A program made the position numbers and the translations under genes. From Watersipora subatra (Eukaryota > Bryozoa > Gymnolaemata > Cheilostomatida > Watersiporidae), in NCBI RefSeq assembly GCF_963576615.1, contig NC_088708.1:55601196-55665195 (forward strand): a DNA stretch of 64,000 nt. Reading direction: 5' to 3'. Positions within the stretch are counted from its first letter, which is position 1; every line of letters starts with the position of its first letter. Below the pieces are notes generated by a model that did no database searches, was not told where the DNA came from, and worked only from the letters and a program-made list of their open reading frames with translations. Below are positions 1,458-16,487 of this stretch, in pieces.

Positions 1458-16487
<15,030 letters not shown>

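What the first reader, a model, noticed from the sequence alone, without database searches (positions are those of the whole stretch)
15712..15714. Catalytic acid Glu of GH9 replaced by Gly in copy A
All other GH9 motifs are present and the 12-exon frame is open, yet the signature reads NGVSCDYNA where copy C reads NEVSCDYNA. This Glu is the proton donor in GH9 cellulases (GAA to GGA). A full-length, secreted CBM2-GH9 protein without it would be a pseudoenzyme, perhaps only binding cellulose.
Basis: partly seen in the sequence, partly recalled or inferred. Interest (0 to 1): 0.75.

Follow-up and report, generated by a model that had tools for sequence, protein, structure and literature searches.

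The report
Cellulase gene missing its catalytic acid
In a bryozoan, a group of tandemly duplicated cellulase-type genes has swapped the one acidic residue that cuts cellulose for a glycine while most of them keep open genes, so these copies are probably dead as enzymes and may have been kept for another job.

Summary
Confirmed: codon 15712-15714 is GGA (Gly556 of a 12-exon, 579-aa GH9 protein); the catalytic acid Glu stands there in 105 of 105 single-domain homologues aligned. It is neither a base-call error nor a one-gene oddity. The window lies in a GH9 array (at least 20 exon-11 loci) of the bryozoan Watersipora subatra; of 19 loci read over the site 7 have Gly, 11 Glu, 1 Lys. Four Gly copies, including copy A, are near-identical tandem units; G1 and G4 are at least as diverged from A as the Glu copies; the seventh, G3, has a broken frame. 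A second catalytic-site loss (Asp183 to Asn) hits 5 of 17 copies, in none of the 16 readable at both sites together with Gly; of 14 copies without a stop in the exons read, 10 lack one carboxylate. The 'CBM2' has no Pfam hit and lacks two conserved tryptophans, so 'only binds cellulose' is weak. Best explanation: inherited GH9 pseudoglycosidases spread by duplication and probably exchange, under reduced but not absent constraint (omega about 0.34 against 0.21 for triad-intact copies). Function and expression unproven.

The parts
15712..15714 (+). GGA (Gly556) in place of the GH9 catalytic acid Glu
1461..1523 (+). copy A exon 1, signal-peptide-like by eye
   Evidence: equivalent exon in G1, G2, G4, G5, G6
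3071..3211 (+). copy A exon 2, relic CBM2-like domain
3931..4043 (+). copy A exon 3, relic CBM2-like domain
5938..6011 (+). copy A exon 4 (Thr/Pro-rich and longer in G5 and G6)
6128..6286 (+). copy A exon 5, GH9 start to GGWHD (Asp183 kept)
7595..7779 (+). copy A exon 6 (AGDHIKFG, Asp186 kept)
11684..11861 (+). copy A exon 7
12537..12648 (+). copy A exon 8
13102..13273 (+). copy A exon 9
13640..13956 (+). copy A exon 10 (HHRA motif kept)
15561..15757 (+). copy A exon 11, holds the Glu-to-Gly site
16459..16487 (+). copy A exon 12 (LLHFRESS, stop)
   Evidence: model C-termini of P0001 and P0011; found in 9 of the 10 copies whose 3' region was held, absent with exon 11 in B
21943..29780 (+). copy B: exons 5-10 with 9 in-frame stops and a 1-base insertion in exon 5, exon 11 not found; pseudogene and control
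56111..56307 (-). copy C exon 11, keeps Glu (NEVSCDYNA)
56308..56309 (-). copy C exon 11 acceptor reads AC; the other 18 array exon-11 copies read have AG
57814..64000 (-). copy C exons 6 (cut by the window end) to 10; its exon 5 with Asp183Asn lies beyond the window (locus L038)

Best explanation
Copy A is one of a group of tandemly duplicated GH9 genes of the bryozoan Watersipora subatra in which the catalytic acid Glu was replaced by Gly. Shown: the change, its presence in six other copies, open 12-exon frames in copies A and G1, conservation of most of the GH9 core, and that exon 11 is compatible with one origin of Gly while exons 5-10 reject one clade (so exon exchange or more than one origin). 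Inferred: without a general acid the inverting hydrolysis of beta-1,4-glucan cannot protonate its leaving group, so the presumably secreted protein should fold and may still hold a glucan chain in its cleft but not cut it; the copies are kept by weak purifying selection for a non-catalytic role (glucan-binding lectin, decoy or helper) rather than being passengers.
For: Gly in 7 of 19 array exon-11 copies read, GGA in all seven; assembly from PacBio HiFi, QV 63.2 (passages of PMC12902671). Acid and base roles of Glu and the two Asp in GH9: passages of PMC6032398 and PMC4221708. A keeps 79 of 82 positions conserved in 95% or more of 105 homologues, and both Asp. Copies A and G1 are open over 12 exons, while pseudogene B, no more diverged from A (dS 0.19, against 0.21 for G4 and 0.26 for G1), has 9 stops. 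Codon-model omega 0.34 for six Gly copies and 0.37 within the A group, which shares the Gly. A Gly-type NCBI protein model exists (P0011, 'endoglucanase G-like isoform X2 [Watersipora subatra]'). A predicted model of the Glu paralogue P0001 matches animal GH9 structures (TM by target 0.95-0.97). A Gly clade fits exon 11 as well as the best tree (AU 0.53 against 0.47); exons 5-10 reject it (AU 0.011) (G3 was not in these trees).
Against: Constraint looks weaker in Gly copies (omega 0.34) than in triad-intact copies (0.21); few sequences, no formal test. Pair tests that involve G11 reject neutrality (p 1.5e-5 to 2.7e-4), but A-G9 (0.44) and A-G13 (0.30) do not and G9-G13 is borderline (0.047); gene conversion may inflate them. 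Some Gly copies changed other core positions: G4 Trp441Gly, G1 Val557Ala (both 105 of 105 in homologues), G11 Phe190Tyr. One Gly copy (G3) has a broken frame, the end of exon 4 of G4 was not resolved, and G9, G11 and G13 were read only in part. No RNA reads were seen; no activity or binding is known. The CBM2 relic argues against cellulose binding by that domain.
Confidence: 0.6

Rival explanations
1. Birth-and-death passengers: the array is overgrown, selection is relaxed, and Gly (and Asn) copies are inactive duplicates that have not yet picked up stops.
For: Copies B, G2, G3 and G19 carry stops (9, 1, 4 and 1); omega is higher in Gly (0.34) and Asn (0.42) sets than in triad-intact copies (0.21); Asp183 GAT to AAT lies in a CpG (CACGAT), a plausible recurrent mutation; copy C lost an acceptor; A-G9 and A-G13 do not depart from neutrality.
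Against: Three Gly lineages (A group, G1, G4), 0.21-0.27 apart in dS, have no stop in the exons 5-11 read, whereas B at dS 0.19 from A has 9; A changed only 3 of 82 conserved positions.
Confidence: 0.33
2. Still an enzyme: another residue or the substrate supplies the proton, or the target has a good leaving group, so the fold has shifted chemistry rather than lost it.
For: Both Asp kept in the six Gly copies read there; exon 11 evolves fast (omega 0.59 across 14 open copies, 0.29 for exons 5-10).
Against: No new acidic residue next to the site ([16 protein letters not shown]); Glu is 105 of 105 in the homologues aligned.
Confidence: 0.06
3. Base-call, assembly or haplotype artefact.
For: Primary k-mer completeness is 69.65% (passages of PMC12902671), which I read as high heterozygosity; near-identical units could include a retained haplotype.
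Against: HiFi, QV 63.2; Gly in 7 copies, of which G1, G4 and the A group are well diverged from one another.
Confidence: 0.01

Closest known systems
Animal GH9 endoglucanases (Eisenia 3WC3, Perinereis 4ZG8, termite 1KS8)
   Same: 48%, 48% and 44% identity to the paralogue model P0001, same fold; copy A keeps the DAGD and HHR motifs
   Different: Catalytic acid is Gly; member of an array in which 10 of 14 open copies lack one catalytic carboxylate
Bugula neritina CBM2-GH9 (P0015) and the lone W. subatra GH9 at C1:33.60 Mb
   Same: Same domain order in Bugula; Glu and DAGD kept in both
   Different: Bugula's CBM2 scores in Pfam and keeps its tryptophans; the array's does not
GH9 domains of tunicates and a few other animals with altered sites
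   Same: Loss of conserved catalytic residues in an open protein (Clavelina P0009: DGGG and SSVAIDYN); [quoted passage not shown]
   Different: Other residues lost; the listed tunicate proteins are long, about 900-1000 aa, with more than one GH9 match
GH45 of Phytophaga beetles
   Same: Multigene animal cellulase family with copies lacking the catalytic acid (DVI4) or base (LDE9) and no measured activity (passages of PMC6509783)
   Different: Other family, acquired horizontally, tested biochemically
Chitinase-like lectins (YKL-40, GH18)
   Same: Secreted glycosidase fold without activity that still binds its glycan (abstract of PMC11190707)
   Different: Other fold; binding proven there, not here

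Membership tests
GH9 (PF00759) | Match to the family profile over its whole length | tested here: met
   E 2e-128, profile 1-444 of 444 (the 575-aa model with exon 11 read through, which holds the whole domain)
GH9 (PF00759) | GH9 catalytic-domain fold | tested here: met
   Paralogue P0001 (90% identical to A over residues 130-575) predicted at mean pLDDT 87.3, TM by target 0.95-0.97 to 3WC3, 4ZG8, 1KS8; copy A itself was not folded
Catalytically competent GH9 cellulase | DAGD: supporting Asp and catalytic base Asp | tested here: met
   HDAGDH at residues 182-187 of copy A
Catalytically competent GH9 cellulase | Catalytic acid Glu in N-E-V-x-x-DYN | tested here: not met
   Gly556, GGA
CBM2 (PF00553) | Profile match and the conserved surface tryptophans (their binding role is recalled) | tested here: not met
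   No Pfam hit at E up to 10; Trp of the first strand and of the LEIW position absent in A and P0001
Pseudoenzyme (non-catalytic, functional) | Loss of a catalytic residue in an open, constrained gene | tested here: inconclusive
   Open frames and omega about 0.34, confounded by likely gene conversion
Pseudoenzyme (non-catalytic, functional) | No activity and a demonstrated other role | not testable with these tools
   Needs expression and assays

The most novel reading that the evidence does not exclude
Watersipora has turned a cellulase array into a family of secreted non-catalytic GH9 proteins, inactivated by two separate routes (acid to Gly, supporting Asp to Asn) that coincide in none of the 16 copies read at both sites, stripped of the CBM2 tryptophans, with a fast-evolving exon 11, and used as glucan-recognition or decoy proteins.
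Probability: 0.22. Interest if true: 0.72.

Novelty: new variant of a known kind. Interest (0 to 1): 0.52.

Why it matters
It would be a multigene, duplicated lineage of GH9 pseudoenzymes in an animal with triad-intact paralogues alongside, a natural experiment on what a cellulase fold is kept for once it cannot cut. It also shows that a plain 'GH9 = cellulase' annotation would overcount digestive enzymes here: only 4 of the 14 open copies read keep all three catalytic residues.

Tried and rejected
Rejected: (1) Exon 11 as the last exon (read-through to GKNSS): protein models from this contig and an exon found in 9 of 10 copies with the 3' region held give exon 12. (2) Base-call error: Gly in 7 copies. 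(3) Copy C as intact reference. (4) A specially conserved intron-10 element (14961-15120): 97% between A and C but 88-93% in six of the seven other copies matched in the held blocks, the seventh (G6) only in two short pieces. (5) Mutual exclusion of Asn and Gly as a sign of selection: 0 of 16 copies have both, but by hand (no call) the chance is about 0.06 even ignoring relatedness, so not claimed. (6) Rfam (gathering scores) and tRNA scans of the window: no hits. (7) Papers: eight searches listed no paper whose title or shown abstract is about bryozoan GH9 or GH9 pseudoenzymes; nothing wider is claimed.

Full report
Observation. The codon at 15712-15714 is GGA. In copy A's corrected model (12 exons, 1461 to 16487, 579 aa) this is Gly556 within [16 protein letters not shown]. 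phmmer places it on the Glu of solved GH9 enzymes in the printed alignments. The homologue search listed the best 120 of 3254 hits. Of these I aligned 105 (left out: 3 rows of this genome, 12 tandem-domain or irregular proteins); the column is Glu in 105 of 105. Among the 12 left out, pairwise alignments show Glu only in 6, Gln and Glu in 1, and other residues in 5. Passages of two papers state that this Glu is the catalytic acid and that the two Asp of DAGD supply the base function (PMC4221708; PMC6032398).

Where it is. A protein named for Watersipora subatra lies on a contig of 79350317 bases (P0011), the length of the contig that holds the window; assembly size and longest scaffold agree with the published genome (783.70 Mb, 79.35 Mb; passages of PMC12902671). 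A family search of the genome shows an array of GH9 exons at about C1:55.20-55.86 Mb and one lone GH9 gene at 33.60 Mb (counts are lower bounds). An exon-11 search found 20 array loci (22 rows, minus the lone gene and one double row); one (55413742) stops before the site. Of the 19 that can be read, 7 have Gly, 11 Glu and 1 Lys. Gly is coded GGA in all seven; Glu by GAA or GAG.

The Gly copies. Four (55494614, 55533669, 55574759 and copy A at 55616757) are tandem units about 40 kb apart with exon 11 at 99-100% identity to A. Two others, G1 (55219269) and G4 (55291007), are at least as diverged from A (dS 0.26 and 0.21) as the Glu copies (0.18-0.23). The seventh, G3 (55272404), has a broken frame. 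G1 is open over all 12 exons, as are the triad-intact G5 and the Asn copy G6. G4 has no stop in exons 5-11 but the end of its exon 4 was not resolved. G9 is open in exons 5-11, G11 in exons 5, 6 and 9-11, G13 in exons 5, 6, 10 and 11, the parts in hand.

A second loss. The supporting Asp183 (first D of DAGD) is Asn in 5 of 17 copies read (G2, G6, G8, G21 and copy C); it is Asp in 105 of 105 homologues. GAT to AAT lies in a CpG (CACGAT), so it may have recurred; exons 5-10 reject a single Asn clade (AU 0.025; G21 was not in that data set). Asp186, the base, is kept in all 17. Both sites could be read in 16 copies: 6 Asp+Gly, 5 Asn+Glu, 5 Asp+Glu (one of them, G19, with a stop), 0 Asn+Gly. Of the 14 copies without a stop in the exons read (G21 and G22 only in exons 5, 6 and 11), 10 lack one carboxylate and 4 (G5, G18, G22, G23) have all three. 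Even G22 has changes at two other conserved positions (Phe190Ser, Pro193Leu).

Copy C. It keeps Glu556 but has Asn183 and AC instead of AG before exon 11; the other 18 array exon-11 copies read have AG. So none of the window's three copies has an intact GH9 gene: A lacks the acid, B is a pseudogene with 9 stops and no exon 11 found, C lacks the supporting Asp and an acceptor.

The accessory domain. The N-terminal part of A has no Pfam match even at E 10, whereas Bugula's CBM2 scores E 2.7e-7. Against six CBM2-bearing relatives, the tryptophan of the first strand (6 of 6) and that of LEIW (5 of 6) are missing in A and P0001, and exons 2-3 of G1, G2, G4, G5 and G6 also have no tryptophan but the core one. 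That the domain descends from a CBM2 is inferred; that these tryptophans bind cellulose is recalled.

Constraint. Codon-model omega over exons 5-11: triad-intact copies 0.21 (4 sequences), Gly copies 0.34 (6), within the A group 0.37 (4), Asn copies 0.42 (4); exon 11 alone 0.59 and exons 5-10 0.29 over 14 open copies. Pairs that involve G11 depart from neutrality (p 1.5e-5 to 2.7e-4), A-G9 (0.44) and A-G13 (0.30) do not, G9-G13 is borderline (0.047). Many differences within the A group are shared with other copies, so gene conversion is likely and these tests are not independent. The best control is B: dS 0.19 from A and 9 stops in exons 5-10, against none in exons 5-11 of G1, G4 or A. Against retention: G4 lost Trp441 and G1 Val557, both 105 of 105 in homologues.

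Origin of Gly. On exon 11 alone a Gly clade (G3 not included) fits as well as the best tree (AU 0.53 against 0.47); on exons 5-10 it is rejected (AU 0.011). Either exon 11 was exchanged between paralogues or Gly arose more than once. The data do not decide.

Structure. Alignment A2 (35 proteins) gave a model of the Glu paralogue P0001 at mean pLDDT 87.3, with a strand-rich N-terminal domain and a GH9 domain matching 3WC3, 4ZG8 and 1KS8. Copy A itself was not folded. Foldseek also lists a GH9 active-site mutant with bound cellohexaose (7V0I, title only), a lead that a dead GH9 can still hold substrate.

Mechanism. Shown: loss of the acid with most of the core kept. Established knowledge: inverting GH9 hydrolysis needs that acid. 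Inferred: no cleavage, possible binding, a non-catalytic role. I put 0.6 on retained pseudoenzyme, 0.33 on passengers, 0.06 on altered catalysis, 0.01 on artefact. Novelty: a new variant (pseudoenzyme lineages within a GH9 array) of a known kind; GH9 and GH45 proteins with lost catalytic residues are on record, and none of the papers listed by my eight searches is, by title or shown abstract, about these genes.

Noticed in passing
56308-56309 (- strand): Copy C's exon 11 acceptor is AC instead of AG; either C is splice-broken or it uses a rare GT-AC intron.
   Followed up: partly
G000:C1, about 55.197-55.860 Mb (around the window): At least 20 GH9 exon-11 loci in both orientations over roughly 0.66 Mb, with pseudogenes among them; a large animal GH9 array.
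   Followed up: partly
G000:C1:55508267, 55547161 and 55590026 (rows): GH9 exon fragments, with stops in most rows, follow each of the three other A-like units, placed as copy B follows copy A, so the tandem unit seems to carry a B-like pseudogene each time. Not read.
   Followed up: no
L032/L033 (C1:33601718-33608474): A lone GH9 gene outside the array keeps GGWHD, AGDHVKF and EVATDYN and resembles Bugula neritina P0015; perhaps the ancestral-type enzyme.
   Followed up: partly
copy A 14961-15120, intron 10: Intron stretch 97% identical between copies A and C, 88-93% in most other copies; perhaps a conversion tract.
   Followed up: partly
exon 4 of G5 and G6: Linker length varies through Thr/Pro-rich repeats (+45 and +42 bases in frame against copy A); G2 and G4 have similar repeats whose end was not resolved.
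   Followed up: partly
55464236-55464445 of C1 (L044): Another exon 11 with Lys at the catalytic acid (NKVLCDYS), no stop in that exon; rest of the gene not read.
   Followed up: no
30154-31469 and 43427-43831: Two arrays of the same 31-base unit; the first begins some 370 bases after copy B stops aligning, so it may mark the break that removed B's exon 11.
   Followed up: no
55838-56001: 14-base tandem repeat downstream of copy C exon 11, longer than the matching stretch in copy A.
   Followed up: no
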